64,000 nucleotides of DNA, from contig CAMYXP010000007.1 of NCBI GenBank assembly GCA_947303085.1, positions 1 through 64,000 of the forward strand. The letters run 5' to 3'. The translations under genes and the position numbers were made by a program. A model generated the notes under the pieces. The model did no database searches and was not told the DNA's origin. It was given only the letters and a program-made list of their open reading frames with translations. Numbering within the stretch: position 1 is the stretch's first letter; the number at the start of each line of letters is the position of its first letter. Of the stretch, positions 8,011 through 23,756 are shown one piece after another. The DNA comes from an uncultured Bacteroidales bacterium (GTDB taxonomy: Bacteria > Bacteroidota > Bacteroidia > Bacteroidales > F082).

Positions 8011-8020
8011 TGTTCTGATT

Positions 8021-8117: not shown

Positions 8118-8162
8118 TTATATAGTATGCTTTCTGTGTGACCTTTAAATATCCTCTGTGTG

Positions 8163-9296: not shown

Positions 9297-9506
9297 TTTA
9301 ATAAATATGTTAAGTTATTTGATTATTTTCATCTTTAAACTTTAAACTATCAACTGACTTTAAACTATAAACTATCAACTTTCAACTATAGCCCAGTCAG
9401 TGCGCTGGCAGCAATCTCCCAAGCCTTTGGCAAGCCCAAAGGGTTTGCTTAGGTTTGCCAAGTCCTTGCCATATCGCTAAAAGGGTTTGCCTGGGGTTTG
9501 CCTGTG
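9297..9506. repeat. Low-complexity intergenic spacer
   Basis: The 210-base gap between the PfkB gene and gmd holds two kinds of repeat: TTTAAACTATCAACT units (about 9337-9390) and GGTTTGCC/TTGGCAAG units (about 9420-9502), some inverted so that hairpins are possible. I see no coding sequence and no exact promoter box. This is the longest such spacer in the fucose operon. Confidence 0.65.
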
Positions 9507-10406
9507 TTATATCTGCATCATCCCCCTGGCACCTTCGTAGGAGCAACTTTTCGCCCCCACTTTCTGGGCTTCGTTCAATGCCGACTCTATCTCAGCCTTC
9601 GAGAATCCACCAATCCGACGGACTTCTTTGTCCTTATACAGCCCGTTGATCAATGCCGCAGCCGTCCAGTCGCCCGCACCGGCCGTGTCAACAACATTCC
9701 CGTTCAAAACCGGCTCCAGATGAGTCCACCCGGAATTGAGCCTGTAAATCAAACCATTGGTCCCTTGTGTCTGGATAAAGAGCTTATCCTTGTAGCCCTC
9801 AAACTGCTGAATGTCCTTGATGCGCTGTTCTGAGAACTTGACGATGTCCGCGACTTCCACACATTGGTTGAACCGCTTGACGTCGCCCCCTCTGCTGGAT
9901 GGCTCAAAGAAAACAACGGAGCCTTTTGCCTTGAATGCGGCTGCCAGTTTCAGTATGGCAGGTGCCACACGGTCGAAGAAAAACACCTTGGGCACAAAGC
10001 CAATGTGACTGATCACCTCGTTGGCTTGTTTCAGCGTCAAGGGCTTGAAGTCAAGATAAAACCGACCCACATTGTTCCTCGACTCGAACTTATGCGTCGG
10101 TATTCCGTCTTTGTTGACGAAGTTGCGCTGCACAATGACCGGGGTCTTGCCGTCGCTGGTCGAGACATAATCGGTGTGTACCTTGTGCTTATCCATATCA
10201 GCCAACACCCTCTTTCCGTCCTTTGTGCCGTCGAGCCGGGCTATGGGATAAGCCTCCCATCCCATGTGGGAGAGAATCATCATCACATTGCCACACGTGC
10301 CGCCCACATAATAAGACACAGGGATTCGTTCCCCGTCCCTAATCAAGACATCCAGACTTATCAGCCCTGCACCAACGCAAATATTTTTATTAGTTTCTTG
10401 TTTCAT
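9507..10406 (-). CDS. PfkB family carbohydrate kinase
   Basis: A ribokinase-fold kinase of 299 residues. The N-terminal A-G-L-I-S-L-D-V-L-I and Y-V-G-G-T-C-G-N-V segments form the sugar-binding side. The C-terminal signature D-T-A-G-A-G-D-W-T-A-A-A-L carries the catalytic aspartate and anion hole. The substrate is unknown; fructose, adenosine-type nucleosides or another furanose are possible for the family. It starts 10 bases after the AbiEii stop, so it seems to be the third gene of the AbiE operon rather than a member of the fucose set, from which a 210-base repeat spacer separates it. Confidence 0.8.
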   Translation of the reverse strand: MKQETNKNICVGAGLISLDVLIRDGERIPVSYYVGGTCGNVMMILSHMGWEAYPIARLDGTKDGKRVLADMDKHKVHTDYVSTSDGKTPVIVQRNFVNKDGIPTHKFESRNNVGRFYLDFKPLTLKQANEVISHIGFVPKVFFFDRVAPAILKLAAAFKAKGSVVFFEPSSRGGDVKRFNQCVEVADIVKFSEQRIKDIQQFEGYKDKLFIQTQGTNGLIYRLNSGWTHLEPVLNGNVVDTAGAGDWTAAALINGLYKDKEVRRIGGFSKAEIESALNEAQKVGAKSCSYEGARGMMQI

Positions 10407-10416
10407 GTTTCAAGTT

Positions 10417-11220
10417 TCAAGATGCTGGATTTAACCTCTCCACCAACTTCGTTTTTACCACTTTCCAAGCTTCAGACGGCTGGTACTCCACCTGCGGGCC
10501 AAGGATGATGTCGGTGTCTGTCAGGAACTCCTCATCCTGCAGTTTCTCTTCCATGTTGAGCACGAACTCCTTGTAGGTGGGCAGATGCGATGCCGTGAAG
10601 CCCAGATACCGCTCGTAGCTCTGCATCACCTTCGCACAGTCCAAATTGGGGTTCATTGTCAGTATCTTCCACAGGTCGAACAGGTCGCGGCCTTTCCTGC
10701 GCTGATAGACGGCTCGGAGCTTCGTGCCCGTCATCTCGGCCAGCTCATACGTCAGCACCTCGCACTGTCCGCTGAACCACGAGTTTTGCACCACAAACGG
10801 CACCCGTACCATCGGGAACACCGAGAAATGCTCCTTGCAGTTAATCTCCACCTTCAGGTGAATCTCACCCGCATCGGTGTCGGTGGGCTGCGCCTTGAAC
10901 ACCAGCGTGTTGTTGTGCTTTTTCTGCTTCACCACCGGTGTGCCCAGCCAAGCCAGCGCATCGCGCAGGTGGTCGATGGTCTCCTTGATGGGTTCCGCCT
11001 GCACCTGCACCAGGTCAATGTCCTCTGAATAGCGAGGCTGCGGATGGAGGTAGAGCTTGCCCAAAGCAGTACCGCCTCGGAACGCCAGATGCTCCTTCAG
11101 GAACGCATCGCTATAGATGCTCACCAGCGCACGGCAGATGATCAAGTCCTGCTCGATGAACTTATTCTCCACCCAAGGGGCCTGCTCGCTCCATTCTGTT
11201 ATATATCGTACGGGTATCAT
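10417..11220 (-). CDS. AbiEii-type nucleotidyltransferase toxin
   Basis: Toxin component of an AbiE (type IV toxin-antitoxin) pair, which can cause abortive infection. The nucleotidyltransferase signature F-R-G-G-T-A-L-G-K (residues 47-55) is followed by R-Y-S-E-D-I-D-L-V with the metal-binding D-x-D. K-L-R-A-V-Y-Q-R-R-K-G-R-D-L-F-D-L is the typical C-terminal motif. Length is 267 residues. It overlaps the upstream antitoxin gene by 4 bases. Confidence 0.88.
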   Translation of the reverse strand: MIPVRYITEWSEQAPWVENKFIEQDLIICRALVSIYSDAFLKEHLAFRGGTALGKLYLHPQPRYSEDIDLVQVQAEPIKETIDHLRDALAWLGTPVVKQKKHNNTLVFKAQPTDTDAGEIHLKVEINCKEHFSVFPMVRVPFVVQNSWFSGQCEVLTYELAEMTGTKLRAVYQRRKGRDLFDLWKILTMNPNLDCAKVMQSYERYLGFTASHLPTYKEFVLNMEEKLQDEEFLTDTDIILGPQVEYQPSEAWKVVKTKLVERLNPAS

Positions 11221-12023
11221 AACTCGTCAATCTCTATCGTTTCGTTCACAATGATTTTCCACTTTGCGTTGCGCTCGCAGCCTGTGCTTTCCTTTCCCGC
11301 TTTCAGCGGCACATATTGCAGCACGGCACCTGAGCCCTTCAACAGCCCCATCACCTGCTCTGCCGCCACTGTTTCGTCCAGCACCTCGTCGAGGATATAG
11401 CCCAGACGCTGCATACTGCTCACCGGCACCTGCTCGACGAACTCGGGAGTGAGCCGTGAGAAGTCGGTCTTTTCCGCCAGCTCTGCCAGCACTGTGGCCG
11501 CCCTGGTGATGCTGCCCGACTTGGCCTGATAGGTAATCAGGTCAACGGCCGTCAGCTCGGGGCACGACACGTTGATGTAGCCGGTACGGGTCTGCCTGCG
11601 CTCGACATACGCATCGGGGATGCTGCTTTTGCAGAAATAGTGGGTGAGGTACTTCTCGCCCTTCTTGTCGCGCATCGACGGGGGCTCAATCATCACGCTG
11701 AATCGCAGCGGCACCTGATGCGACGCTCCGTGATAGCTAGCTGCACTCATCAGTGCCACATAGTACTTGCGACCCGCGTGACGCATCATATCGTCGAGAT
11801 AAAACGGCTGCGGCACGGCTCCGCGAAGCATATACTCGTCGGGCACAATGACATAGAACCCTCTGAGGGGCGACATCACCTTGCCCTTGCTCACCTCGCG
11901 GGTCAGCGCACGGGCAATGCTGCCGGCACTCATGTCGGGGAACGCCCTGACCACCTCGTCGTGCGTAAAGGTGTAATGGCCTCTGAGCGGCTTGTCGTAT
12001 ATCCAGCTTGCTATGCTTGCCAT
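11217..12023 (-). CDS. AbiEi-type antitoxin / transcriptional repressor
   Basis: Antitoxin of the pair, 268 residues. Residues about 15-60 look like a winged helix (F-T-H-D-E-V-V-R-A-F ... R-G-F-Y-V-I-V-P), followed by the family core Y-Y-V-A-L-M-S-A-A-S-Y-H-G-A. Characterised AbiEi proteins repress their own operon by binding inverted repeats upstream. Here a perfect AGACA/TGTCT inverted repeat lies between the promoter boxes 29 bases before the start, so autoregulation is likely. Confidence 0.87.
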   Translation of the reverse strand: MASIASWIYDKPLRGHYTFTHDEVVRAFPDMSAGSIARALTREVSKGKVMSPLRGFYVIVPDEYMLRGAVPQPFYLDDMMRHAGRKYYVALMSAASYHGASHQVPLRFSVMIEPPSMRDKKGEKYLTHYFCKSSIPDAYVERRQTRTGYINVSCPELTAVDLITYQAKSGSITRAATVLAELAEKTDFSRLTPEFVEQVPVSSMQRLGYILDEVLDETVAAEQVMGLLKGSGAVLQYVPLKAGKESTGCERNAKWKIIVNETIEIDEL

Positions 12024-12044
12024 TTTTTATTAATATTTCGACTG

Positions 12045-12077
12045 CAAAGATAGACATTTTTTGTCTAACTGCGCAAA
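12045..12077 (-). promoter_or_regulatory. Bacteroidota-type promoter of the AbiE operon
   Basis: On the minus strand the -33 element TTTG (12074-12077) is followed after 21 bases by TATCTTTG (12045-12052), an exact match to the TAnnTTTG -7 box. The AbiEi ATG follows 21 bases downstream. This is the clearest promoter I found in the window. Confidence 0.8.
12052..12066. promoter_or_regulatory. Inverted repeat, probable AbiEi operator
   Basis: A perfect AGACA-TTTTT-TGTCT repeat lies between the two promoter boxes and touches the -7 box. A repressor bound here would block polymerase. Assignment to AbiEi is by position and family knowledge. Confidence 0.6.
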
Positions 12078-12122
12078 CAATACAACGAAATTCTTTTTTT
12101 ATTATTGTTTTGAAGATTCTTT

Positions 12123-13205
12123 TTACACGTAAGGCTCCCCATTTATCCACATCAAGAATGGCTCACTATGCTTATTGGCATCAATGATTTTGCGTTTGTC
12201 CGCAATGTCATATTTCGACGAGTTCACATTATATACCTGCACCTCATCCTCATACTTCAAGCCAATAAGCAAAACACCAAGTGCCAAAAGCTTGCTGGTC
12301 AGAAGGGCAAAACCGAAACATATCTGGCCATCAATCAGATGCAGCGTATCCTTATAGTCCTGCATCAACTTTTCCAACCGGTTATACAACTCGAAGGGGT
12401 CGCGTTCCGGTGCATACAGCAGGTTCTGCGGCTCCACCATCAAAGTGTCTGTCAGGAAATCATTATACTCCCACAGCAACTGGTCTGAACGACCGGGCTC
12501 CTTCGACGGGAACGGCAAAACAGGACAAACCTCTTTGGGATGGAATGTGTCGTACACTAGTTTCAGATGCTCCTTTTTGTCTTCACCCATCAGTGGCACA
12601 AAGATATTGATAGGATTGAACACCGACTCCATACCGTAGGAAGCCCTGAAATTGTATAGCGGGGTTATCGTCTCTTCGTTGTATTTCTTCTTTATCAACT
12701 TGTCTATCTCCACATTCTCTGAAACGGTGATGAAGAAATTGGTCTGGTCATACTGTGTCTTCTTATAGAGCAATTTGGCGATATTGTAATAATAAGCACA
12801 CGGGATGGCACTGACATCCAATATGATATCGGTATAGGAGGTATAGGCAATCTGGTTCAATTGCCTGAGCATACTCTTGATGCGGTTGTCCCAAGTCAGC
12901 CTCGCATCAATTGTAATCGTCTGATAAGTTACACCTTTTTCATTCAGCAGCGCCTCAAACTCAGCCACATTCTGTTTATAGAACTCGTCACCGTCTGTTT
13001 CTTCCCTTGCCGGGAAGTCAACGGCCAGACAATCCATCGACTGGTAGGCCACGTCCTCAAAGATCTTCTTCAAAGTGTTGTTCATCCTTGGGTCAAAACC
13101 TTTCCCCATCACGAACAACAACTTAGCGTTTCTTTGTGCATAATAGCTCCTCCAAAAATCAGAGACTTCTTCCTGTTGAAAGAACATATAGGAATTCCAC
13201 TTCAT
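12123..13205 (-). CDS. Unknown protein, last gene of the five-gene operon
   Basis: A 360-residue protein I do not recognise. The N-terminal half looks like an alpha/beta Rossmann-type fold: A-K-L-L-F-V-M-G-K-G-F-D-P-R (about residues 27-40), then C-L-A-V-D-F-P-A-R-E and D-I-I-L-D-V-S-A-I-P-C-A-Y-Y-Y, with strands ending in small or acidic residues as in nucleotide-binding folds. There is no signal peptide, and hydrophobic runs near residues 295-315 are short. It starts 14 bases after the stop of the AAA-type ATPase gene and is probably co-transcribed with it. A sensor or effector role is possible but not shown. Confidence 0.6.
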   Translation of the reverse strand: MKWNSYMFFQQEEVSDFWRSYYAQRNAKLLFVMGKGFDPRMNNTLKKIFEDVAYQSMDCLAVDFPAREETDGDEFYKQNVAEFEALLNEKGVTYQTITIDARLTWDNRIKSMLRQLNQIAYTSYTDIILDVSAIPCAYYYNIAKLLYKKTQYDQTNFFITVSENVEIDKLIKKKYNEETITPLYNFRASYGMESVFNPINIFVPLMGEDKKEHLKLVYDTFHPKEVCPVLPFPSKEPGRSDQLLWEYNDFLTDTLMVEPQNLLYAPERDPFELYNRLEKLMQDYKDTLHLIDGQICFGFALLTSKLLALGVLLIGLKYEDEVQVYNVNSSKYDIADKRKIIDANKHSEPFLMWINGEPYV

Positions 13206-13219
13206 AGCTCACCCTTTCT

Positions 13220-15088
13220 TTATAGCCAGGATTTAATCTGATCAAGCTTCAGTTTTCGCCATCCCCCATAGTTCAGCGGGATGCCTGCATATACACACAA
13301 GGCACGGTTAAGATAGAATACCGACCACAACTGCCCCTTCTTCCCCTGCACCTCATCAGGCTTTAACGTCAGCAAGTTGTAGGCCACACAGGTTCTCAAC
13401 AAGTCTATTAACCGGGCGTTCTCTGGGTCTTTATGCCAAGGCACATCACTCTTCTGTCGTCGCGTACCGAAGTCGTCATTCACGGCAAAACCGCTGACCG
13501 TCCTGTACGAATAGCTATCTGTAAATGTCTGCTTCTTGCAGAAGTCAATCATCCTCAGCAGGAAAACCTTCATTTCATCGCCCCGCGGCATTTTCTCTAT
13601 TCTGGCAAAATACTCAACCGCCTTATCCCTGATAACGTCATCCTGCTCTTTTGCCGTCAGCGAGTAATCCGTTGGACTCGTTATCTTTTTCGCTGTGATA
13701 CGGCTGAACAGGGCCGATGAGAAATCAAGGAACTGCTCAACGTTTACGTTGGCCACGTTGATAAGCGTCTTTTCGCCATAATACTTGGGCAAGCCCAGTT
13801 CCGCAGGCAGGATTTCTTCCGTGGCCTTCAACGTATCCGACAACAAGGAGTTTAGTTCGTCCTGCTCATAAGGGAACAGACGCATCGTCTCAACCTCTTC
13901 CGTTTTGCGGTTCGCACACATCAAAAGTGCTCTGGCATAATATGCCCGTTCCTTCAAATCAGTTATGGATTCCACAGCTTCAATAAGATTCTGGTATGAC
14001 CTTATTTCAGGATCGGAAGTGAGTTTCTGCAAATATTTCTGGGCTCCCGCCCGATACTTTTGTTCCCACTCCCCTTCGTCGCTGTTGGCCAACAGCATCA
14101 TCAGGTCGATGTCGGCCATGGCGTATGTCGACCGCCTGTTGGCAATCAACTTGACCATCCTCTCAAATTCGGTGGACTTGTCTTTATACTTGTTCAGTTC
14201 TATTACTTGGTAGTCACGCTCCTGCTTGTCCGTTTCAAGCAGTTCGTTTGAAACCAGGTTGTCCAGTCGCTCTGCTATCCAGAAGGTGACGTTCAACCGT
14301 GTTTCAACGCATACCTTTTCGAGCGTGCCGCGCTGACCCTTTGTCAACTTATGGGCATCGTCAAGCTGAAAAATGAACTCATCACAAAGACTGTGGCCGG
14401 GATACGAGAACCACTGAGCATTCATCAGTGGTAGCACAAACAGCGACGAGCAGGAGAAAACGCTGTTTCCCTCCCGCTCGAAGGAGTTGATGGCTTTATA
14501 TATCTCTTTTTCTTTTTCAGAAGCCCAGTCCAGCAAGTCTTTGCAGCTGCATCTCGTTCTGGGAAAATCCAACTCTGCATCCAAAATATTGGCATCCTGA
14601 GGTGCGTAAGTTATCTTATACAAATCATCAGCCCCCGCTCCCGTCAGTTTCATCAACGTCTTAATCGTGGCTATGACAAAGCGTACATTGAGCAATGCCA
14701 GAAACAATGATGTCTGCTCTGCCTTGGAATACATTTCCTCATCATCAATCAGGGCATAGTCGCTCCGCGTCAGCAGATAGACTGCACTTCGCTTGATTCT
14801 GTTCTTGTCCTTTACCCCAAGTTTGTTCAATGCCTCAAACACATCCCTCGTTTCCTTGTTATGACTCACAATCTTTTTTAAGACCGTGGGGTGGAAAATA
14901 CGCAATAGGGATGTCTTTCCAAATCCGGGAGGGCTTTGGATAAATGTTACGAAATGCCACAACTTGCCGTCATCGTTCTGCTTTTGCAGTTTCTTCATGG
15001 GTTCCGTTGAAAACAGCCTCAGAAACAGCTCGTCAGAATCGATATTCTCGGTTGTGCGCAGTGCAAAAGGATTAGAGGGACGCTCCAT
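13220..15088 (-). CDS. AAA/STAND-like ATPase of the five-gene operon
   Basis: A 622-residue protein. A Walker A motif S-P-P-G-F-G-K-T-S-L lies at about residues 52-61 and a Walker B-like F-I-F-Q-L-D-D-A-H-K-L near residue 240, with a long helical C-terminal part. The order resembles Orc/Cdc6-like or STAND ATPases, which often act as switches in defence or signalling. It starts one base after the PRTase-like stop, so translation is coupled. The motifs support NTP binding; the partner or target is unknown. Confidence 0.7.
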   Translation of the reverse strand: MERPSNPFALRTTENIDSDELFLRLFSTEPMKKLQKQNDDGKLWHFVTFIQSPPGFGKTSLLRIFHPTVLKKIVSHNKETRDVFEALNKLGVKDKNRIKRSAVYLLTRSDYALIDDEEMYSKAEQTSLFLALLNVRFVIATIKTLMKLTGAGADDLYKITYAPQDANILDAELDFPRTRCSCKDLLDWASEKEKEIYKAINSFEREGNSVFSCSSLFVLPLMNAQWFSYPGHSLCDEFIFQLDDAHKLTKGQRGTLEKVCVETRLNVTFWIAERLDNLVSNELLETDKQERDYQVIELNKYKDKSTEFERMVKLIANRRSTYAMADIDLMMLLANSDEGEWEQKYRAGAQKYLQKLTSDPEIRSYQNLIEAVESITDLKERAYYARALLMCANRKTEEVETMRLFPYEQDELNSLLSDTLKATEEILPAELGLPKYYGEKTLINVANVNVEQFLDFSSALFSRITAKKITSPTDYSLTAKEQDDVIRDKAVEYFARIEKMPRGDEMKVFLLRMIDFCKKQTFTDSYSYRTVSGFAVNDDFGTRRQKSDVPWHKDPENARLIDLLRTCVAYNLLTLKPDEVQGKKGQLWSVFYLNRALCVYAGIPLNYGGWRKLKLDQIKSWL

Positions 15089-15089
15089 A

Positions 15090-16226
15090 TCAATGTCTAC
15101 TTATTCGTGGGAAAAGGCCTCTGAATTTACTTGTATCTTCCCATATCACGGGCATGGTGTTGTTGGGTGTGTTGTGCGAGAGTACCAACAGCAACCCACA
15201 CTCATTGAAACCCCAGTAGGGTTCATCATGCTTGCCTTTTCGATAACTGTCGGTCAGAATGGCCGTCCAGTCATAGTACTTGTCTTTTTTCAGTACGTTC
15301 TTAAGTCCGGAATGGTTCTTTATAAGTTCAATTTCTTCTGACTTGATCAATTGCACGCAGTCCACGTTGAACTGAATCAGGTCGTTCATGCCGTTGTCCG
15401 AAAGATAATTGCCTACTTCACGGTTGATATTCTCGACAGCCTCTTCTGTGGCTACACAGAACAGGGCGTTGACCTTGATTTTATCCTTCACGAACAGGTC
15501 TGAAAGCTCAATGCTCGATTCATCACCCGATTTGCCGTCCGTGCTTGCCTCCTTAGGTTTCAAACCCTTTAGAACCTTAATGATTTTGCCCTTGAACTTA
15601 CCCTCCTCCTTTCTGGCAAAGCTGGTTCCACTCGCAGTGAAATCATCCACAAGAAACAACGACTCAAACAGATTCCTGCTGGTTCCCTTGAGCAAGCTAT
15701 CCTTCTGCAATTCATCATACATATCCTGCAATTTCTCCTGATTGGGATAATACATCGGGAGCACCTGCTCGTTGCTGAATCCAGCCGTTCGCCTGAGAAT
15801 GTCTGTGTGGGAACCGTCGCTCAAGCCTACAACCAATGAGAGACGCTTCTGGATTTTGTATTCCTGTGAGGTTTCAATCTTGTTCAACTGGTATCTTGAC
15901 AAACCTGCCCTGCTTGCAGCCAAGTCTCTGATGAACGGTTTTATCTTTGAGCTGTACATCAAGTCCACAAGATACTTGATTTGCTCAGACGAGATAAAGG
16001 TCAGGTGCTTGTTGAAAGCCGAATAGATGGTTTCCACATCTTCCTTGTCAAACTGTGACATCCATTGGGCAAAACTCGACATGAACCTGAAGCCAGGGTC
16101 AAACTGGCTATAAGAATCATATTTCGTTCTGGCCATGAAGGACAATTTCGGTAGCTCCTTGCTCAGGCGCTTATCGTCCCACTTCGTGACCTTCGCTAAC
16201 AATGAAACTGCAAGATTGTCATTCAT
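15090..16226 (-). CDS. Phosphoribosyltransferase-like protein of the five-gene operon
   Basis: A 378-residue protein with the phosphoribosyl-pyrophosphate binding loop L-F-L-V-D-D-F-T-A-S-G-T-S-F (about residues 190-203): hydrophobic strand, two aspartates and a T-A-S-G-T loop as in type I PRTases. The helical N-terminal 100 residues and the long C-terminal extension are unlike the housekeeping purine or pyrimidine enzymes. It could attach a base to a ribose phosphate or act as a regulator. It overlaps the SIS-HAD gene by 4 bases (ATGA). Confidence 0.65.
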   Translation of the reverse strand: MNDNLAVSLLAKVTKWDDKRLSKELPKLSFMARTKYDSYSQFDPGFRFMSSFAQWMSQFDKEDVETIYSAFNKHLTFISSEQIKYLVDLMYSSKIKPFIRDLAASRAGLSRYQLNKIETSQEYKIQKRLSLVVGLSDGSHTDILRRTAGFSNEQVLPMYYPNQEKLQDMYDELQKDSLLKGTSRNLFESLFLVDDFTASGTSFARKEEGKFKGKIIKVLKGLKPKEASTDGKSGDESSIELSDLFVKDKIKVNALFCVATEEAVENINREVGNYLSDNGMNDLIQFNVDCVQLIKSEEIELIKNHSGLKNVLKKDKYYDWTAILTDSYRKGKHDEPYWGFNECGLLLVLSHNTPNNTMPVIWEDTSKFRGLFPRISRH

Positions 16227-18115
16227 ACGCTAAACTTACATTTGATAACACCGTCTTTTGCGGTGAGGCGGCTCAGATAGTATAGTGTGGCATCCAGTCC
16301 CTTCAGGCCCGAGGGGGCTATGTTCCAGCAACTCTCGGCATTCTTCGACACCCTGTCCACGCTGAGGGAGGCCGGGCTGGAAAGCAGTTCGTAGTCGTTG
16401 CCCTCCACGCTGCCGTAGTCACCGATGCACAGGGTTTTGGCGGCATCTTCGATGACACGGAGTTTGCTCACTTCGCGATAGGCCACTATGTCCATGCTGT
16501 GGCTGCTGCGCCACACGCGGATGCCTTTTAGCTGCTTGTCCCAGATGATTTCGCAACAGGTGTCGTATATGATTTCCGCATCCGACGCGGTTTTTACCTC
16601 TTCAATGGAAAGCTGCTGGTTGCGTTCCGACAGGTCATATTTGATGCAATCCTTTGGCAGACGCTTTTGCAACTCTTCACTCAACGCCTTCAGTTCACTG
16701 TCGAAAGGCTGGTTTTTCCACTCCTCCAGTAGCGCTTCCTCGCCCAGTGTCAGAAGACAGGCGCCATTGTAGTAGCCCACCTTGATTTGTGGCCAATATT
16801 TCTTGTCGAACGATGGCTTGAACGACTTGCTTATCGACTGGCCACGACCCGTGGCTATCACAATCTGTACTCCTTTTTCCAAGAGCGAAGTCAGCGCATC
16901 TTTTATCTCGTCACAAAGGCCATTGGTATAACGGCTTTTACGGTCGGAGGCCGAAAGTGTACCGTCATAGTCGAAGGCTATTGTGGTGTATTTCCCCCTG
17001 TTCAGCTGCCGCACAAAACGCTGGCAGGCTTCGCTGTAATGCTGCCGTAAAGCGACATTCTCCATTCCCGCAGCACCCAGTTTGCGACGCACGGCCACAT
17101 CCAGTGTCTTTTCCGTTGGCAGGATACGGCTGATCAGTTTGTAGTAGTCCAGGTTATAGAGCGTCCGTCCGTATGAGGGCACTCCTGGTCTGCCTGGGTC
17201 AATGCCACGTGCCATGCCCAAATCGTTCACGAAACGGAATGCTTTCAGCAGCAGGTCGATGGATGCCGCTGCCGTTTCCAGCTCGGTTTCAAGATAGATG
17301 ACCGGCACATCCTTGGGCAGACAACCTATTGTTTTGTAAGCCAACTCACGCTCAACGGGCGACACCAGAGCGATGATGCAGGAGTTCTTTCCACGTTTGG
17401 CAAACCAGTGATGACGGCCATGCCCGAAGTTGCGGTAGTCGCTGAGCAAGGCAGCACCCAATGCGGCCTCGGTCAGCTTGGACTCAATATCCCACGCCAC
17501 GGGTTCGCCAGCCGCACCGTACAGCACGATGAAGTTCTGGATGGTTGAGAGTTCAAGGTTCAAGGGTTCAAGGTTCAAGGGTTTGGAACTTTGAACTTTA
17601 AACTTTGAACCAACCGCAGCTTTGCAGAGCAAAGCGAAGGTGGCAACCAGTGAGTTGGTGGCCAAGAATCCGTCTTTCTCGCTGGGAATGTCTTCACACC
17701 AACGCTGCACCTTGGGGTGCTGTTCCAGCAACACCTCGGTGGGGTTGTTCTTGCGGAGCGTCAGGCTCATCATGCCCGTCTCGTTATATTTCACGCCATA
17801 CTTGATGGCATTCAGTATGTCCTTGTTCTTGCCACTGGCACTGAGGAAGAGCAATTTGCTGTTACGGATAATATCCTGCCCGGCATACATCAGCTGCAAG
17901 GGGGTCATGGCTTCTGCCAACACGCCATTGCGACGCTGATACAACTGTGCCGCATAATGGCAGGCACTCAGCGAGCCTCCCGATCCGATGCACACCAGCG
18001 GGGTTTGTCTGTCCTCACCAAAAAGGAACTTCGAGAGACAAGTCACATCCTGCCCCTCGGCCCATTCGATGGTACTGGACAATTTCTCCAACTCACCTTT
18101 AAACGGTTTTCCCAT
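16223..18115 (-). CDS. SIS domain fused to a HAD hydrolase
   Basis: A 630-residue fusion. Residues about 1-340 are a sugar isomerase (SIS) double domain, with C-I-G-S-G-G-S-L-S-A-C at 42-52 and F-L-S-A-S-G-K-N-K-D at 90-99 as phosphosugar-binding loops. Residues about 375-630 are a HAD phosphatase with A-F-D-Y-D-G-T-L-S-A (DxDGT nucleophile motif) and I-A-T-G-R-G, of the sugar phosphatase type. The pairing suggests successive isomerisation and dephosphorylation, or sensing, of a phosphosugar. A low-complexity stretch (coding 17544-17611) inserts K-F-K-V-Q-S-S-K-P-L-N-L-E-P in the SIS part. I do not know a characterised homologue with this architecture. Confidence 0.72.
   Translation of the reverse strand: MGKPFKGELEKLSSTIEWAEGQDVTCLSKFLFGEDRQTPLVCIGSGGSLSACHYAAQLYQRRNGVLAEAMTPLQLMYAGQDIIRNSKLLFLSASGKNKDILNAIKYGVKYNETGMMSLTLRKNNPTEVLLEQHPKVQRWCEDIPSEKDGFLATNSLVATFALLCKAAVGSKFKVQSSKPLNLEPLNLELSTIQNFIVLYGAAGEPVAWDIESKLTEAALGAALLSDYRNFGHGRHHWFAKRGKNSCIIALVSPVERELAYKTIGCLPKDVPVIYLETELETAAASIDLLLKAFRFVNDLGMARGIDPGRPGVPSYGRTLYNLDYYKLISRILPTEKTLDVAVRRKLGAAGMENVALRQHYSEACQRFVRQLNRGKYTTIAFDYDGTLSASDRKSRYTNGLCDEIKDALTSLLEKGVQIVIATGRGQSISKSFKPSFDKKYWPQIKVGYYNGACLLTLGEEALLEEWKNQPFDSELKALSEELQKRLPKDCIKYDLSERNQQLSIEEVKTASDAEIIYDTCCEIIWDKQLKGIRVWRSSHSMDIVAYREVSKLRVIEDAAKTLCIGDYGSVEGNDYELLSSPASLSVDRVSKNAESCWNIAPSGLKGLDATLYYLSRLTAKDGVIKCKFSV
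17544..17611. repeat. Spacer repeat inside the SIS-HAD gene
   Basis: TTCAAGGGTTCAAGG and GAACTTTAAACTTTG units, identical in kind to the intergenic array at 2276-2343, lie in frame between the two SIS halves. They encode a linker-like peptide rich in K, S, N, L and P. Confidence 0.8.
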
Positions 18116-18118
18116 AAC

Positions 18119-19597
18119 TCATTCTCCTTTTAAGTATTCGCCATGTACGGCATTCAGAACTTTGGCTGCTTCCAGCCATTTGGCTTCCTTGCAGAAGTCG
18201 GGGTTGCGGAAATATTTGTTGAACGATGGACCTGCTATCGGAAACTCCTCGTCGTCCCTGCTCTGCACCTTGGTCAAGGCAGCATACAATTTGTCGCTCA
18301 TGGGGGTCATCCGCTTGAACAGGCTCAGCTCCGAGGCTTCCCTGAGCAGGTGGACGTAGGTCTCCATCTTGATTTTGTCAAGACCGTCTTCCAGCAGTTT
18401 CAGCAGATCCTCCTGCGGCTTCCTCAGGGCGACGTCAATCTTCCCTGAGAACCAGCGGTCGAACAGTCCGTTCAGGTCTTCCAGCGTCTTGCCCGTGGCC
18501 ATGCAGGGCAGCAGTCTGGCATTATATGTCTTCACCTTCTTCAGCACACGGTCAATCCGCTGCTGAAAGTCATCGGAATGTCCTGCCGTGCGTTCAAACC
18601 TGTTTTGTAGTGTTCCCTCCAACTGCCGGCCCATCGCCTCCATCAGCACAAACAGCGTCTGCAGGTGTTCTTCCTCTCCGTCGCTCAGTGTCACGTCTTT
18701 CCTTACAAGGAAGTCAACAATGCCGTCCTCGTCCAGCACGGGGAAACGTTGGCCGCAATGCAGGTCAACAAAGCTCAATACTTTTGAGAACAGCTCGTCG
18801 TTCGCCCAGGGCTTTGCCTTGGCCGGAATATGTTTGGCATCGGGATGTATCTCGTTTTCCTCAAAGAGGTTCTTAAGGTCGCAAAGCAATTCGTGCTGCT
18901 CACTTTCCGACAAGTCCAAGTCTGCCAGTTCATCCTTGCCCACGAGGGCTTGTATGCGCTGTTTCAGATAGAGCAACTGACGGACAACCGTTTTGTTGCG
19001 CTTGGTGCTACAATAGTACGTATAGTCCTGAAGCTCCGTTGTGACGGTCTCTTTCGCTGAGGCCTTGTCAAGATAATCCTTCAGCGCCTTGCTGCGCGAT
19101 TCCTTGGAGATTCTCAGCGGCAGCATGGCCAGATTGCTCAGGTTGGTTTTTAGCGAGTCGAGTGCCATCTCCAAATCCACAATGGATTCGTGGTAGGGTT
19201 TGCGGGCAATCTCCTTATAGGGGTGTTCCATCTTGGCCTTTGGGTCAAGTGTCACATTCCTGTCACACAGTTTCTCCATGAGTGTTCTCAATCGGATAGC
19301 CCTGCCTTCGCCCATTGCCGTGTCGTGCTCCAGCTGGAATTCCGGCTTGTTGAGCTTCTCCTTCCAGTTCTGGATTTTGCGCAGCCATTCGTCGAAGGGG
19401 AAACTCACGTAGAAACTGATGTCGAGGTTTCCCGACATCCGCTGATACTGCGTAGTCACCCCCTCCGCCACGTTCTGGGCATACATCACAAAGAGGAGTA
19501 TGTCAGTATGACGGAACAGGTCGGCAAGGTTGGCTTGAGTCATCAGAAACTCAAGCACTTGCAAACGTGCGGTAATATGTTTTGTTTCTTCAGTCAT
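18119..19597 (-). CDS. Unknown helical protein, first gene of the five-gene operon
   Basis: A 492-residue protein I do not recognise. It is almost entirely charged and helical, with probable coiled-coil stretches (for example around D-L-E-M-A-L-D-S-L-K-T-N-L and Q-Q-R-I-D-R-V-L-K-K-V-K). There is no signal peptide, transmembrane segment or obvious catalytic motif. ATG 19597 opens the operon; the SIS-HAD gene begins 3 bases after its stop. By position it may be a scaffold or sensor for the enzymes that follow. Confidence 0.6.
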   Translation of the reverse strand: MTEETKHITARLQVLEFLMTQANLADLFRHTDILLFVMYAQNVAEGVTTQYQRMSGNLDISFYVSFPFDEWLRKIQNWKEKLNKPEFQLEHDTAMGEGRAIRLRTLMEKLCDRNVTLDPKAKMEHPYKEIARKPYHESIVDLEMALDSLKTNLSNLAMLPLRISKESRSKALKDYLDKASAKETVTTELQDYTYYCSTKRNKTVVRQLLYLKQRIQALVGKDELADLDLSESEQHELLCDLKNLFEENEIHPDAKHIPAKAKPWANDELFSKVLSFVDLHCGQRFPVLDEDGIVDFLVRKDVTLSDGEEEHLQTLFVLMEAMGRQLEGTLQNRFERTAGHSDDFQQRIDRVLKKVKTYNARLLPCMATGKTLEDLNGLFDRWFSGKIDVALRKPQEDLLKLLEDGLDKIKMETYVHLLREASELSLFKRMTPMSDKLYAALTKVQSRDDEEFPIAGPSFNKYFRNPDFCKEAKWLEAAKVLNAVHGEYLKGE

Positions 19598-19671
19598 ATA
19601 CTTGAATCTTGAAACATGAAACTAATAGAGTGATTTCTCAGGAGATTGTCCGGGATGGAGGCGTGCCATAA

Positions 19672-19688
19672 GGTGATTACCCATCACC
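19672..19688. promoter_or_regulatory. Inverted repeat upstream of the five-gene operon
   Basis: GGTGAT-TACCC-ATCACC is a perfect 6-bp inverted repeat about 75 bases before the first gene of the unknown operon. It could be an operator, but no matching TAnnTTTG box was found beside it. The 285-base gap (19598-19882) divides divergent genes, so promoters for both must lie here. Confidence 0.35.
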
Positions 19689-19755
19689 CAGCTTCAACAA
19701 CGCTTGTAAATCAATAGTTTAAAAATAATTCAAAACAAGATGAAAGATGATTTTT

Positions 19756-19770
19756 AAGAGGGATCCTCTT
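19756..19770. other. Hairpin in the divergent intergenic region
   Basis: AAGAGG-GAT-CCTCTT is a perfect 6-bp stem with a 3-base loop. On the plus strand it is followed by GCCTTTTGTTTG, only weakly T-rich. It may be a terminator relic or a protein site. Confidence 0.35.
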
Positions 19771-19882
19771 GCCTTTTGTTTGCAAATCGAAATCAGTCGG
19801 GAAACCGCATCCCGGGTAGCAGTTGACCGCTGGTTTCACGAGAATTAAAACAAGTTGTATCACCTTTTAAAGAAGTAGAGAA

Positions 19883-20386
19883 ATGAACGACATTCAATTC
19901 ACCCCGCACTTCAAGCTGAGCGAGTTCGTCCGCAGTGAGACGGCCGAGAAGCAGGGCATCGAGAACAATCCCTCGCCTGAGGCTGTCGAGAACCTGCGCC
20001 TGCTCAGCATCCATACGCTCGAACCGCTTCGCGAAGCACTGGGCTTGCCCATCGTCATCACCAGCGGCTACCGCTGCAAGGCCTTGAACGACCTCATCGC
20101 CCACCACTCGCAGCGCAGCCAGCACATGAAAGGTCAGGCAGCTGACCTTCTGGTTCAAGGTTCAAAGTTTCAGGTTCAAGGGGCTTCGCCTAGAGAACTG
20201 TTGATCAAGGCGTTTAAAACCATCATCACCAGCCCAGAGATTGACTACGATCAACTCATCATCTACCCCACCTTCATCCACGTGAGCTTCGTCAGCCACA
20301 GCGACAACCGCCACAAAATCATGTCGGCCAACGGACAAGGCACCTACCGTGCCCTAACCCGCGCCGCCGCTCTCAACATCCAGTAA
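19883..20386 (+). CDS. M15 family zinc peptidase (D,D-carboxypeptidase-like)
   Basis: A 167-residue peptidoglycan peptidase of the M15A type, common in Bacteroidota phage-like cassettes. I-V-I-T-S-G-Y-R-C precedes the zinc motif S-Q-H-M-K-G-Q-A-A-D (about residues 75-84), and F-I-H-V-S carries the final zinc histidine. No signal peptide is visible. An AAGAAG ribosome-binding site precedes the ATG. A spacer-type repeat (20152-20190) inserts V-Q-G-S-K-F-Q-V-Q-G-A-S-P just after the zinc motif. It is the intact paralogue of the damaged frame at 271-741. Confidence 0.85.
   Translation: MNDIQFTPHFKLSEFVRSETAEKQGIENNPSPEAVENLRLLSIHTLEPLREALGLPIVITSGYRCKALNDLIAHHSQRSQHMKGQAADLLVQGSKFQVQGASPRELLIKAFKTIITSPEIDYDQLIIYPTFIHVSFVSHSDNRHKIMSANGQGTYRALTRAAALNIQ
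20152..20190. repeat. Spacer repeat inside the M15 gene
   Basis: GGTTCAAGGTTCAAAG units, identical in kind to the intergenic arrays, continue the reading frame and add about 13 residues between the zinc motif and the next helix. Confidence 0.75.
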
Positions 20387-20390
20387 CCAA

Positions 20391-20455
20391 CTTTCAACTT
20401 TAAACTTAAAAACTGACTTTAAACTTTAAACCTTAAACTTTAAACTTTATAAAAA
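20391..20455. repeat. TTTAAACTTTAAACC spacer array
   Basis: The whole gap between the M15 gene and the next plus-strand gene is built from AACTTTAAAC and CAACTTT units. No promoter box can be separated from it. Confidence 0.7.
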
Positions 20456-21370
20456 ATGGCTCAAGTAAAACAAATCGGTCCTGGCCGTAAAACCAGCGGT
20501 ACCATCGACGGTATCACCTACGTAACCCGCAACGGAAAAACCTACGTCCGTTCCACCCCCACCATGCCTGTCAGCGCCTACCGCACCCCTGCGGCCCGCA
20601 AGCGCCAGGCCATCTTCACCCTCATCCAGATGCACCTCAAGTTCCATCTGCGCACCATCCGTCAGACCGTCACCCCCAAGGGCAACGGCACTCCCACCAA
20701 CCGCTACTACTCGCTCAACGCCAAGGCCCTCAACCGCGCCCTCGACGCACTGGCCGAGCGTTTCGTGGCTGGTGACGACGTGAGCATCACTGACGTGGAG
20801 GCCGCCATTGCAGCTTACGCTGCCGAGCACCCCACCTCCATCCGCATCGCCTCGCTCAGCGGCTACCAGGAGGTCTATCTCACCGGTGAGTGGCCCGCCA
20901 CCATCACTCTCAACGCCAACGCTGGCGACAGCACCGTCATCATCATCGTGGCCGAAAACGGTAGCACCACCACCATCGAACCCAACGGCACGGCCACGGT
21001 CGTGAGCGGCACGGGTAACGAAAACCAGACACCGAACGGTGGTTCTTCGACAGGTGGCAACACTGGTGGTAACACTGGTGGCGGAACTGAAACTCCCGTA
21101 ACTGTCGCCGCCCCGACGATCACTGGCACCACTCCGTTTGAGGAGACTACCGAGGTGACCATCAGCGGACCTGCGGGTGCCTCGATCTACTACACGCTTG
21201 ACGGTAGCACGCCTACTGCCTCCAGCACTCAGTACAGCGAGGCCCTGACCCTCTCTGACACCACCACCGTGAAGGCCATCGCCATCAAGGACGGTGTCTC
21301 CAGCTCAGTCGCCTCGAAGACCTTCACCAAGGGCACTGGCAACGGTGGCGGCCTGCAAGGCGAAGACTAA
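20456..21370 (+). CDS. Two-domain protein: DUF6266-like N-terminus and chitobiase-type C-terminal domain
   Basis: A 304-residue protein without a signal peptide. Residues 1-135 (M-A-Q-V-K-Q-I-G-P-G ... R-N-G-K-T-Y-V-R-S) resemble Bacteroidota DUF6266-like or HU-like proteins of phage-related cassettes. A glycine/threonine-rich linker (G-G-N-T-G-G-N-T-G-G) follows at about 195-215. The end (A-P-T-I-T-G-T-T-P-F ... I-Y-Y-T-L-D-G-S-T-P-T) matches the CHB_HEX_C_1 beta-sandwich found at the ends of chitobiases. The position between M15 and a small membrane protein is typical for this cassette. Function unknown; DNA binding or a structural role is possible. Confidence 0.65.
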   Translation: MAQVKQIGPGRKTSGTIDGITYVTRNGKTYVRSTPTMPVSAYRTPAARKRQAIFTLIQMHLKFHLRTIRQTVTPKGNGTPTNRYYSLNAKALNRALDALAERFVAGDDVSITDVEAAIAAYAAEHPTSIRIASLSGYQEVYLTGEWPATITLNANAGDSTVIIIVAENGSTTTIEPNGTATVVSGTGNENQTPNGGSSTGGNTGGNTGGGTETPVTVAAPTITGTTPFEETTEVTISGPAGASIYYTLDGSTPTASSTQYSEALTLSDTTTVKAIAIKDGVSSSVASKTFTKGTGNGGGLQGED

Positions 21371-21372
21371 GC

Positions 21373-21385
21373 GTCGCTACGCGAC
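21373..21385. other. Perfect GTCGC-TAC-GCGAC hairpin after the stop codon
   Basis: A 5-bp stem with a TAC loop starts 3 bases after the preceding stop codon, just ahead of the palindromic element. Its loop and layout resemble the hairpins within that element. Confidence 0.4.
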
Positions 21386-21392
21386 TAGTTTA

Positions 21393-21526
21393 TCAAGAAT
21401 TAGAGAATTTTAGAATTTTTATTTGAATTATTGAGAATCAGAGAATTGGTCTGCTACGCAGACTGTCCGCAGGACAGCATTCTACCCTTTCTTATCAATT
21501 CAGTTCTCTAATTCTCTAATTCTTGA
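21393..21526. repeat. Palindromic intergenic element, copy 2
   Basis: TCAAGAATTAGAGAATT at the left end and AATTCTCTAATTCTTGA at the right end are exact inverted repeats. Inside are GTCTGC-TAC-GCAGAC (21449-21463) and CTGTCC-GCA-GGACAG (21463-21477). Against copy 1 (3222-3384) the first stem has a compensated base-pair change, so pairing is kept while sequence drifts. Confidence 0.82.
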
Positions 21527-21562
21527 CCTAAAAATAATTATTCACTTAAAATTCAAATCAAA

Positions 21563-21745
21563 ATGAAAATCAAGTTAAGCAAATCACAGATTGAAGACAT
21601 CATCTCTGACCCTGAGAAAGCTCAGGAAGCCGGAATCAAGACCAACGACCCTTGGTGGGTTATCGTCCTCAAAGTGTTGGCCTACCTCATCGGCCTCATC
21701 CTTGCCGGTGCCGTAACCACCAGTTGTGCTTCTCACATCATCTAA
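21563..21745 (+). CDS. Small membrane protein, smalltalk-like
   Basis: A 60-residue protein with a charged N-terminus and one C-terminal hydrophobic segment (W-W-V-I-V-L-K-V-L-A-Y-L-I-G-L-I-L-A-G-A) that ends T-T-S-C-A-S. Size, shape and position directly before an amidase-fold gene fit the smalltalk family of Bacteroidota, whose function is unknown. A holin-like role beside cell-wall hydrolases is a possible reading. ATG at 21563. Confidence 0.65.
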   Translation: MKIKLSKSQIEDIISDPEKAQEAGIKTNDPWWVIVLKVLAYLIGLILAGAVTTSCASHII

Positions 21746-21757
21746 AACTCACAAGCC

Positions 21758-22192
21758 ATGCGTCAAATCAAATACATTCTCATCCATGAAGCACTTCCCG
21801 AAAACTCTCCTGGTGTGCCTCGTATTCGTCGTGACCGTGACCGCGGATACCACTACGTCGTCAACGCTGCAGGCGTCGTCCGCAACCCGCTCGACATCCA
21901 CCAGCCCGGCACCTTTGCCGCAGTCATCCGCAACCTCAACCCCTTCGACCGAAGGGACTACAACGCCTTCTCCATCGGCATCCATTACAACGGTTCGTTG
22001 GAAGAAGACCTTAAATTTATGGTGAGCTCGTCGAACCACTCTCAACTTTCAAGTCTCGTTGACTTGATTGTCGACCTCCGCAGTCACTTCCCCGAAGCCA
22101 AAATTCTCTCCACCTCCGAAATCGACGGCAAGACCATCCGCCCCTCCAACGCCATGAACCAACTCAGGCTTCAACTCAGCGACCTCCCATGA
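21758..22192 (+). CDS. N-acetylmuramoyl-L-alanine amidase-fold protein, probably inactive
   Basis: A 144-residue amidase_2-like protein: I-L-I-H at the first zinc position and G-Y-H-Y-V-V with the conserved tyrosine. The C-terminal G-H-R-D and K-x-C-P motifs of the family are missing; the aligned stretch reads I-L-S-T-S-E-I-D-G-K-T-I-R-P-S-N-A. That removes two of the three usual zinc ligands (the second histidine and the cysteine). Coding 22013-22060 includes a dispersed repeat that adds V-S-S-S-N-H-S-Q-L-S-S. It may have become a binding protein or be decaying. A terminator follows. Confidence 0.7.
   Translation: MRQIKYILIHEALPENSPGVPRIRRDRDRGYHYVVNAAGVVRNPLDIHQPGTFAAVIRNLNPFDRRDYNAFSIGIHYNGSLEEDLKFMVSSSNHSQLSSLVDLIVDLRSHFPEAKILSTSEIDGKTIRPSNAMNQLRLQLSDLP
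22013..22037. repeat. Dispersed TTCGAC-type repeat inside the amidase gene
   Basis: ATTTATGGTGAGCTCGTCGA is the inverted, diverged form of the unit at 3745-3768. It is followed by CTCTCAACTTTCAAG spacer units, all within the reading frame. Confidence 0.55.
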
Positions 22193-22232
22193 AACCTACT
22201 AAGCGATTAAGCCATTAAGCTACTAAGCCACC

Positions 22233-22272
22233 AACGGAACCCCATCACCCCCGATGAGGCTCCGTTTTTTTT
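22233..22272 (+). terminator. Terminator after the amidase-fold gene
   Basis: ACGGAACCCCATC pairs with GATGAGGCTCCGT (two mismatches) around a short C-rich loop and is followed by eight T. It ends the plus-strand cassette. The preceding 35 bases are TTAAGC/CTAAGC repeats. Confidence 0.82.
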
Positions 22273-22385
22273 ATGCCGCAATCCCCTTGCATTGACAAAT
22301 GAGGGAATAAACATGCAAATTACTGATTTTTAGCCTCGGGACAGGTACCTGTCCCTCTGTCCCTGCCGGGCTTGACCCGGAATCT

Positions 22386-22616
22386 CTATTCGTACTGATT
22401 CTTATGTTTATTCCGTTCACTCAACTCCAGCAACTCCTTAAACATCCCCAACCTCGGTTCCTGCAACGCCCCTGCATTCATCAACTTTCTCCCTCTTTTC
22501 AGGAAATGCACCATCATTTTTTCCTCATCATAGTATTTCGACGGATTCCTGTGATTGGTCTCAATGAAGCTCTTTACTTCATTGTATCTTGCCAACCATC
22601 TCTCATCTTGCGTCAT
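22386..22616 (-). CDS. Small helicase-associated-domain-like protein, copy 2
   Basis: A 76-residue paralogue of the protein at 850-1080, sharing M-T-Q-D-E-R-W-L, R-Y-N-E-V-K, T-N-H-R-N-P-S-K-Y-Y-D-E-E-K and H-F-L-K-R-G-R-K-L-M-N-A-G. It again lies at the very end of a sugar operon (after the UDP-glucuronate epimerase gene) and converges on a plus-strand hydrolase cassette. Role unknown; the repeated position suggests a marker or regulator of the locus boundary. Confidence 0.75.
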   Translation of the reverse strand: MTQDERWLARYNEVKSFIETNHRNPSKYYDEEKMMVHFLKRGRKLMNAGALQEPRLGMFKELLELSERNKHKNQYE

Positions 22617-23751: not shown

Positions 23752-23756
23752 TGTTA

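What the first reader, a model, noticed from the sequence alone, without database searches (positions are those of the whole stretch)
12123..19597. Unrecognised five-gene operon: helical protein, SIS-HAD fusion, PRTase-like protein, AAA-type ATPase and an alpha/beta protein
The genes are separated by 3, -4, 1 and 14 bases, so they must be co-transcribed. Seen directly: SIS phosphosugar loops and a DxDGT HAD motif in one protein, a V-D-D-F-T-A-S-G-T PRPP loop in the next, and Walker A/B motifs in the third. Such a mix of phosphosugar isomerase, phosphatase and ribosyl-transfer chemistry beside an NTPase switch suggests synthesis, sensing or destruction of a nucleotide-like metabolite, as proposed for other conflict systems. 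It lies directly next to AbiE and 4.5 kb from Septu/Gabija. I do not know a described system with this order.
Basis: partly seen in the sequence, partly recalled or inferred. Interest (0 to 1): 0.8.

Follow-up and report, generated by a model that had tools for sequence, protein, structure and literature searches.

The report
Two-module phosphoribosyl-transferase conflict operon
A set of five bacterial genes with no known function travels together in distantly related bacteria and on plasmids, and three of the five are swapped as one block between strains, which suggests an uncharacterised defence or conflict system built on ribose-transfer chemistry.

Summary
In detail: five minus-strand genes (A-E) at 12123-19597, spaced 3, -4, 1 and 14 bases. 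The boundaries are not. AbiE sits in a cargo pocket between E and F; A is optional. In 34 loci found with E, C-D-E occurs in 34, B (whole or cut) in 32 and F in 26, each miss being at a contig end. Bacteroidota, Acidobacteriota and Bacillota MAGs and plasmids of Pseudomonadota and Actinomycetota carry it. Key catalytic residues of B, C, D and F are invariant. C-D-E behaves as one exchangeable cassette: in three locus pairs, 91-97%-identical flanks stop at the B/C border and resume around the end of E, with C-D-E only 33-46% identical. Two plasmids carry two C-D-E copies per B+F, 8 of 17 add NADAR, and NADAR also pairs directly with other PRTase-CE genes. Best reading: a conflict system in which a gated PRTase makes a ribosylated product that B, F and NADAR make, recycle or undo.

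The parts
16223..18115 (-). B: double-SIS phosphosugar domain fused to a HAD phosphatase (core, module II)
   Evidence: Pfam Hydrolase_3 over cut-off, SIS below cut-off; SIS part aligns with 8eol/3hba at 5e-07; E216, H232, D382, D384, K551, D566 in 43 of 43 sequences that passed the length filter
15090..16226 (-). C: PRTase-CE phosphoribosyltransferase, PRPP loop VDDFTASGT (core, module I)
   Evidence: PF24390 2.8e-23; PADLOC PRTase_III-A 8.1e-20; D194 and D195 in 50 of 50
13220..15088 (-). D: ORC-CDC6-like AAA-type ATPase (core, module I)
   Evidence: PF24389 7.2e-24; Walker A K58 and Walker B D243 in 53 of 53
12123..13205 (-). E: CARF6-type protein (core, module I)
   Evidence: PADLOC PDLC01910 CARF6 8.6e-99; D38, D130, S132, E267, P270 in 53 of 53; no Pfam or PDB match
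9507..10406 (-). F: PfkB-family sugar kinase, last gene of the core operon (module II)
   Evidence: PF00294 4.8e-18; directly behind or overlapping E in L083, L092, L093, L096; D246 of GAGD in 42 of 42; subfamily in 4 of 4 searched genomes with the cassette and 0 of 6 whose PRTase-CE/ORC loci lack it
18119..19597 (-). A: helical protein, optional accessory gene
   Evidence: No convincing family hit; in 5 of 34 E loci plus the window; in 4 of 172 genomes of the family including the window's own, each beside the cassette
11217..12023 (-). AbiEi, cargo in the E-F pocket
   Evidence: PADLOC AbiEi 3.3e-83; AbiE genes or remnants in the pocket of 23 of 34 loci
10417..11220 (-). AbiEii, cargo in the E-F pocket
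   Evidence: PADLOC AbiEii 3.4e-108

Best explanation
This is a two-module conflict (probably anti-invader) system. Module I (C-D-E) is a swappable cassette: an ORC/CDC6-like ATPase (D) and a CARF-type sensor (E) gate a PRPP-using phosphoribosyltransferase (C) that acts as the effector and puts a phosphoribosyl group on a base, nucleotide or nucleic acid. Module II (B and F, in some plasmids also NADAR) is a shared set of ribosyl/phosphosugar enzymes (kinase, SIS isomerase or deglycase, HAD phosphatase, N-glycosidase) that prepares, recycles or removes that product and so sets or protects the host. Shown: gene content, conservation of catalytic residues, co-inheritance, swapping of C-D-E, NADAR pairing. 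Inferred: every enzymatic activity, what D and E sense, the direction of module II, and defence itself.
For: C-D-E in 34 of 34 loci, B 32, F 26, misses at contig ends. E and B on plasmids share 17 of 18 records each. Three exchanges of C-D-E with edges at the genes' borders; pairwise identities correlate 0.989-0.992 within C-D-E but 0.58-0.63 with B in 24 Bacteroidales loci, and B-F 0.87 over all loci. Two C-D-E copies per B+F+NADAR in L123 and in L118/L138. Relatives of C sit beside a reverse transcriptase, NA37, a weak HNH match or NADAR; retron III-A1 typically has PRTase/WH effectors (PMC12548924 passages) and a DprA+PRTase pair protects against T7 and lambda (PMC9122126 passages). NADAR reverses guanine ADP-ribosylation as an antitoxin (PMC11125620 passages). 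SIS and PfkB relatives of B and F sit with NADAR, an ADP-ribosyltransferase-like protein (below the Pfam cut-off) and ADP-ribosylglycohydrolase in L059. Defence neighbours: AbiE, AbiL, PDC-S01, type I R-M.
Against: I know of no activity or phage test. NADAR is absent from the window locus and from 9 of 17 plasmid loci. No nuclease or classical toxin is in the core set. E has no Pfam or PDB match, so 'CARF' rests on PADLOC labels alone. No relative of E was confirmed in viral contigs and none of B in phages. Over all loci B does follow C-D-E fairly well (r 0.77-0.81), so the modules are not independent at depth. C-D-E swapping would also follow from a plasmid-maintenance or inter-bacterial role.
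Confidence: 0.45

Rival explanations
1. Signal-making system: B, F and C together make a nucleoside- or nucleotide-like messenger, E binds it, and D (or the membrane or DNA through D) is the output, as proposed for the Ter system.
For: PRTase plus HAD enzymes are proposed to make a nucleoside signal in Ter (PMC7824862 passages); E is labelled as a ligand-binding class; isomerase, kinase and phosphatase residues are conserved; D-E also occurs with a putative metallophosphatase in L115.
Against: C-D-E occurs in L031 with no B or F within 19 kb and the F subfamily is not found in that genome (B was not searched genome-wide there), so B/F seem not needed for what E senses; E has no recognised fused effector; among Bacteroidales B is inherited apart from C-D-E, odd if B makes the ligand of E.
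Confidence: 0.27
2. Addiction or plasmid/island maintenance module: C is a toxin, B/F/NADAR the antidote, and spread rather than phage defence is what is selected.
For: 19 plasmid records in all, 9 of the 18 B-positive ones predicted conjugative; PRTase-CE next to NADAR as two-gene loci L033-L036, like DarT-NADAR; cargo pocket and optional A look like a mobile platform.
Against: Many Bacteroidales loci lie beside other defence genes in MAG contigs (whether chromosomal was not tested); addiction explains a three-gene swap at a fixed place less well than recognition diversity does.
Confidence: 0.18
3. Ordinary sugar metabolism: an Amadori (FrlB/FrlD-like) or heptose-like isomerase-kinase-phosphatase pathway that happens to carry a PRTase and two regulators.
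For: Double SIS aligning with GlmS-like structures at a Glu and a His plus a PfkB kinase is the FrlB/FrlD and FraB/FraD set (recalled); SIS+PfkB+HAD is also the heptose logic (recalled); genes that read like sugar-nucleotide enzymes flank the region in the window (by eye).
Against: No transporter or glycosidase in the conserved set; on plasmids the same set sits among conjugation, recombinase and toxin-antitoxin genes; patchy distribution (B in 1 of 294 other class genomes); nearly always with PRTase, ATPase and CARF, apart from L130 and the SIS-only relatives, three of four of which sit in a NADAR/PfkB context.
Confidence: 0.08
4. Chance neighbours or a housekeeping cluster.
For: None found.
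Against: Same set in five phyla by record titles and taxonomy; shared plasmid records 17 of 18; patchy presence.
Confidence: 0.02

Closest known systems
Retron type III-A (PRTase plus winged-helix effector)
   Same: C matches PADLOC PRTase_III-A models (8.1e-20); PRTase paired with a putative DNA-linked partner
   Different: No reverse transcriptase among A-F; ORC/CDC6 and CARF instead; extra sugar enzymes
CARF6 proteins (PADLOC label; described, as I recall, in Makarova 2020, not held here)
   Same: E matches CARF6 models at 8.6e-99
   Different: No CRISPR-like array in 8000-30000 and no Cas10 over the curated cut-off in the window's genome
PRTase-CE / ORC-CDC6-like / CARF6 triple (as in L031)
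   Same: Same three families in the same order
   Different: L031 has a DNA methylase upstream and no B or F within 19 kb; ours has SIS-HAD and PfkB
DarT1-NADAR and YarT-YbiA toxin-antitoxin pairs (PMC11125620 passages)
   Same: NADAR as reverser of N-ribosyl adducts beside a transferase; NADAR next to PRTase-CE in 4 of 13 loci and in 8 of 17 plasmid cassettes
   Different: PRPP-type transferase, not an NAD-type one; NADAR absent from the window
Ter stress-response system (PMC7824862 passages)
   Same: PRTase plus HAD plus ligand-binding parts proposed to make and sense a nucleoside-like compound
   Different: No Ter family among the six proteins; CARF and ORC/CDC6 instead
FrlB/FrlD and FraB/FraD deglycation pathways (recalled)
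   Same: SIS enzyme with Glu/His pair plus a PfkB kinase
   Different: HAD fusion, PRTase/ATPase/CARF partners, no conserved transport gene

Membership tests
Retron type III-A | PRTase effector of the III-A kind | tested here: met
   PADLOC PRTase_III-A 8.1e-20 and Pfam PRTase-CE 2.8e-23; that the label means the retron type is my reading
Retron type III-A | Retron reverse transcriptase beside it | tested here: not met
   None of the proteins A-F matches a reverse transcriptase in Pfam, whereas L040:7395-8579 does (RVT_1)
Retron type III-A | msr-msd noncoding RNA | not tested
   No RNA family search was run
Type III CRISPR ancillary (cOA) system | CARF-type protein | tested here: inconclusive
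   PADLOC CARF6 8.6e-99 but no Pfam or PDB match; fold prediction not available
Type III CRISPR ancillary (cOA) system | Cas10 cyclic-oligoadenylate synthase in the genome | tested here: not met
   Csm1 model over cut-off in 0 of 9 genomes with the cassette, Cmr2 in 1 of 9 (G723); window genome: Csm1 21.5 bits against a cut-off of 170, Cmr2 no match
PRTase-CE/ORC-CDC6-like/CARF6 triple | All three families contiguous in this order | tested here: met
   Window and, by HMMs of its own genes, 34 of 34 E loci; L031
DarT-NADAR toxin-antitoxin | NAD-using ADP-ribosyltransferase | tested here: not met
   No ART match among A-F in Pfam
DarT-NADAR toxin-antitoxin | NADAR partner | tested here: not met
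   No NADAR in window 8001-26000; in 8 of 17 plasmid cassettes
AbiE | AbiEi and AbiEii genes | tested here: met
   Genes 10417-12023 are AbiE, but as cargo: absent from the pocket in 11 of 34 loci
Ter system | TerB/C/D/F or TelA parts | tested here: not met
   No such match among A-E or F (Pfam only)
Any of the above | Phage resistance or enzymatic activity | not testable with these tools
   Needs experiments

The most novel reading that the evidence does not exclude
PRTase-CE enzymes are PRPP-using counterparts of DarT: they phosphoribosylate a base in DNA or RNA (or a nucleotide pool), loaded or licensed here by an ORC/CDC6-like ATPase and a CARF sensor, and NADAR together with a SIS-deglycase/PfkB/HAD set removes and recycles the adduct. 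That would be a new nucleic-acid modification and a new class of effector shared by retrons, NADAR pairs and this system.
Probability: 0.14. Interest if true: 0.95.

Novelty: new variant of a known kind. Interest (0 to 1): 0.77.

Why it matters
A 2026 article lists phosphoribosyltransferases among the retron effectors that still need characterising (PMC13158370 passage). Here a related PRTase is tied to a fixed set of sugar enzymes and, on plasmids or in two-gene loci, to NADAR, a known N-ribosyl hydrolase family. That turns 'what does the PRTase do' into a short list of assays. The precise exchange of three genes as one block shows which genes work together and which face diversifying pressure. 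The pocket between E and F is also a place to look for more defence cargo.

Tried and rejected
Rejected: A as a core gene (5 of 34 loci; found only beside the cassette in 172 genomes). Rejected: AbiE as part of the system (absent from 11 of 34 pockets; AbiL, PDC-S01 or nothing instead). Rejected: 'PRTase_III-A' meaning type III CRISPR; it fits retron type III-A. Rejected: F as an ordinary PfkB gene (0 of 6 genomes without the cassette locus at E<=1e-30). Led nowhere: an exact DNA pattern for the PRPP loop in the own genome (no match because the gene spells the serine AGT, which the pattern did not cover); E in viral contigs; B in phages; B in 299 genomes of the phylum of G724 (only G724 itself); PDB sequence searches for C, D and E (nothing convincing); literature searches for the combination (the lists of 111 and 112 were cut at 8 of 16 and 15 of 321). 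Dropped before counting: PF24390 hits below the family cut-off (they look like general phosphoribosyltransferases) and two at 28 bits that pass it (G289, G084). Neighbours of L032, L034, L035, L037 and L041-L043 were not scanned with Pfam; only my HMMs were run on them.
Full report
OBSERVATION. Five minus-strand ORFs lie at the given place with the given spacings. Their families are: A none; B HAD (4e-07) plus a sub-threshold SIS match; C PRTase-CE (PF24390, 2.8e-23); D ORC-CDC6-like (PF24389, 7.2e-24); E none in Pfam but CARF6 in PADLOC at 8.6e-99. C also matches PADLOC PRTase_III-A. Passages of PMC12548924 say that PRTase/WH effector genes are typical of retrons of type III-A1, so I read that label as the retron type. 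AbiEi/AbiEii lie directly downstream and Gabija genes 4.5 kb away.

THE REAL UNIT. A scan of genome contigs with an alignment of E gave 34 loci. HMMs of all genes on these loci show C-D-E in 34 of 34 in the same order; B in 32 of 34, in six of them cut by the contig start (L068, L076, L077, L078, L079, L094), the two misses being L069 and L072, where the contig starts in or just before C; and a PfkB kinase, F, in 26 of 34 (in the other eight the contig ends before the place of F: L066, L073, L076, L077, L078, L079, L080, L091). F lies directly behind or overlapping E in L083 (Sphingobacteriales MAG), L092 (Acidobacteria MAG), L093 (Syntrophopropionicum MAG; Bacillota) and L096 (G502). L072 comes from a MAG titled Gastranaerophilales but looks like the Bacteroidales loci, and may be a misbinned contig. 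In the Bacteroidales loci a cargo pocket separates E and F: AbiE genes or remnants in 23 of 34 loci, AbiL in 2 (L062; L089 by 97% DNA identity with it), PDC-S01 in 2 (L064, L066), nothing in 7. The window has AbiE there, so the operon ends at 9507, not at 12123. A is present in 5 of the 34 loci and the window; in 172 genomes of the family it occurs in 4 (the window's own included), each with the cassette.

F IS NOT A STRAY KINASE. At E<=1e-30 the F subfamily occurs in 4 of 4 genomes searched that have the cassette (G000, G390, G416, G502) and in 0 of 6 that have a PRTase-CE or ORC-CDC6-like locus of another make-up. B was not searched genome-wide in those six.

PLASMIDS. tblastn with the E protein of L118 finds 18 of 72,556 plasmid records, with its B protein also 18; by accession 17 records are shared. 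With the window's own E it finds 17 records, of which 10 were listed. All 19 records of the union were opened. HMMs on their loci show B, C, D and E in 17 of 19, F in 16 of those 17 (not L124), NADAR in 8 (L118, L120, L122, L123, L124, L126, L127, L129; also annotated as NADAR in the records). L130 has B alone, L131 a fragment of E, and L122 has C, E and B broken into pieces. Orders differ: B-C-D-E-F in 8, B-F-(NADAR)-C-D-E in 4 (in L123 NADAR precedes B), C-D-E-B-F in 4, NADAR-B-C-D-E in 1; C-D-E is contiguous and in that order in all 17. Two records carry a second C-D-E: L123 and the S. meliloti plasmid pRRI128_5, where B and F lie between the two triples (L118/L138).

C-D-E IS EXCHANGED AS ONE BLOCK. 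L062 and L089 are 95-96% identical in DNA up to 13 bases past the stop of B, have no alignable DNA over C-D-E (39, 35, 33% amino-acid identity), and are 97% identical again through the AbiL cargo and F. L063/L084 (97.0%, then 96.6%) and L061/L073 (91.3%, then 92.4%) show the same picture. The left edges lie 2 to 13 bases past the stop of B; the right edges lie 3 to 28 bases past the end of E in L062, L089, L063 and L061, and 9 to 16 bases before it in L073 and L084. Over 24 Bacteroidales loci pairwise identities correlate 0.989-0.992 among C, D and E but 0.58-0.63 between B and each of them. Over all loci the contrast is weaker: 0.976-0.987 within C-D-E, 0.77-0.81 between B and C-D-E, 0.61-0.69 between F and C-D-E, 0.87 between B and F. 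Trees of B and E disagree in the same way (21 of the loci, no support test made). These are descriptive correlations; pairs are not independent.

ENZYMES. Over the homologues from 52 cassette loci that passed a length filter (near-duplicates included): B E216 and H232 43 of 43 (aligned with a glutamate and a histidine of the GlmS-like structures 8eol and 3hba; their catalytic role and the FrlB/FraB parallel are recalled); HAD D382, D384, K551, D566 43 of 43, D574 42 of 43; C D194 and D195 50 of 50; D K58 and D243 53 of 53; F D246 42 of 42. E keeps D38, D130, S132, E267 and P270 in 53 of 53. Which residues are catalytic is recalled from the families. The PDB searches put F nearest to sugar kinases and ketohexokinases and found nothing convincing for C, D or E.

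WHAT SURROUNDS THE PARTS ELSEWHERE. Thirteen strong PRTase-CE loci besides the window came from 296 Bacteroidota genomes (two 28-bit hits over the cut-off were left out). NADAR is the neighbour in 4 of 13 (L033-L036; Pfam for L033 and L036, my HMM, built partly from those two, for L034 and L035). Pfam scans of chosen neighbours show a reverse transcriptase in L040, NA37 in L039, a weak HNH match below the cut-off in L038, and a DNA methylase plus ORC-CDC6-like in L031, whose next gene is CARF6; the other five loci were not scanned for partners. D-E also occurs with a protein that reads like a metallophosphatase (my reading; no PADLOC match) in L115. SIS-only relatives of B lie in L057-L060; L058-L060 also have an F-like kinase and NADAR, and L059 an ADP-ribosyltransferase-like protein (below the Pfam cut-off) and an ADP-ribosylglycohydrolase. 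So the SIS and PfkB pair is tied twice to enzymes that make or break ribosyl bonds.

LITERATURE. Ten searches (the last two only partly listed) showed no paper with this set. The two papers most likely to describe parts of it (Makarova 2020 on CARF, Burroughs and Aravind 2020) are not held, so prior mention of the C-D-E triple cannot be excluded. From passages only: Ter is proposed to make a nucleoside signal with PRTases and HAD enzymes (PMC7824862); a DprA+PRTase pair protects against T7 and lambda (PMC9122126); NADARs reverse guanine ADP-ribosylation, and YbiA lies in an operon with YbiB, predicted to have DNA-binding and phosphoribosyltransferase activity (PMC11125620); PRTase retron effectors are named among those still to be characterised (PMC13158370).

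MECHANISM. Shown: a coherent gene set across five phyla, often on plasmids, with conserved catalytic residues, split into two units of inheritance. Inferred: C is the effector because its relatives are effectors in retrons and because it travels with the candidate sensor parts D and E; module II handles the product because NADAR, SIS, PfkB and HAD act, in known relatives, on N-ribosyl bonds and sugar phosphates. The window genome has no Cas10 over the curated cut-offs (one sub-threshold Csm1 match) and no CRISPR-like array in 8000-30000, so E, if a CARF, probably does not read a type III CRISPR signal; one of the nine cassette genomes (G723) does have a Cmr2. Confidence (judgement): real two-module system 0.95; conflict or defence role about 0.7; the direction of chemistry given as best reading about 0.45.

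LIMITS. Most non-plasmid loci are MAG contigs; whether they are chromosomal was not tested. Plasmid and MAG samples are biased and related, so counts are not independent events. Exchange edges come from local alignments and are good to a few bases only.

Noticed in passing
window 24136-26908: GajB/GajA pair (Gabija), PADLOC 1e-138 and 3.9e-217.
   Followed up: no
window 9333-9380 and 20391-20453: Short direct repeats (CTTTAAACT type, 23 nt) occur on both sides of the stretch 9507-19597; they may mark the edges of a variable island or be common intergenic repeats.
   Followed up: no
L059:5376-15899 (also L058, L060): Another candidate conflict operon: ADP-ribosylglycohydrolase, F-like PfkB kinase, NADAR, ADP-ribosyltransferase-like protein, SIS protein, a large protein with a weak PDDEXK match and a UvrD helicase (Pfam on L059 only; HMMs on all three).
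   Followed up: partly
L033, L034, L035, L036: PRTase-CE gene directly beside a NADAR gene: looks like a two-gene toxin-antitoxin pair.
   Followed up: partly
L115:7692-11706: Putative metallophosphatase + ORC-CDC6-like ATPase + CARF6, next to a protein with a weak PDC-S20 match.
   Followed up: partly
L071:11211-12215: Single 334-aa ORF made of the front of AbiEi and the back of AbiEii in the E-F pocket: a deletion remnant.
   Followed up: no
window 8163-9296 and 22711-23751: Genes whose translations read like GDP-mannose dehydratase and a nucleotide-sugar epimerase flank the region (by eye).
   Followed up: no
window 16223-18115, residues about 171-190 of B: A low-complexity stretch of variable length between the two SIS halves, possibly an inserted repeat.
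   Followed up: no
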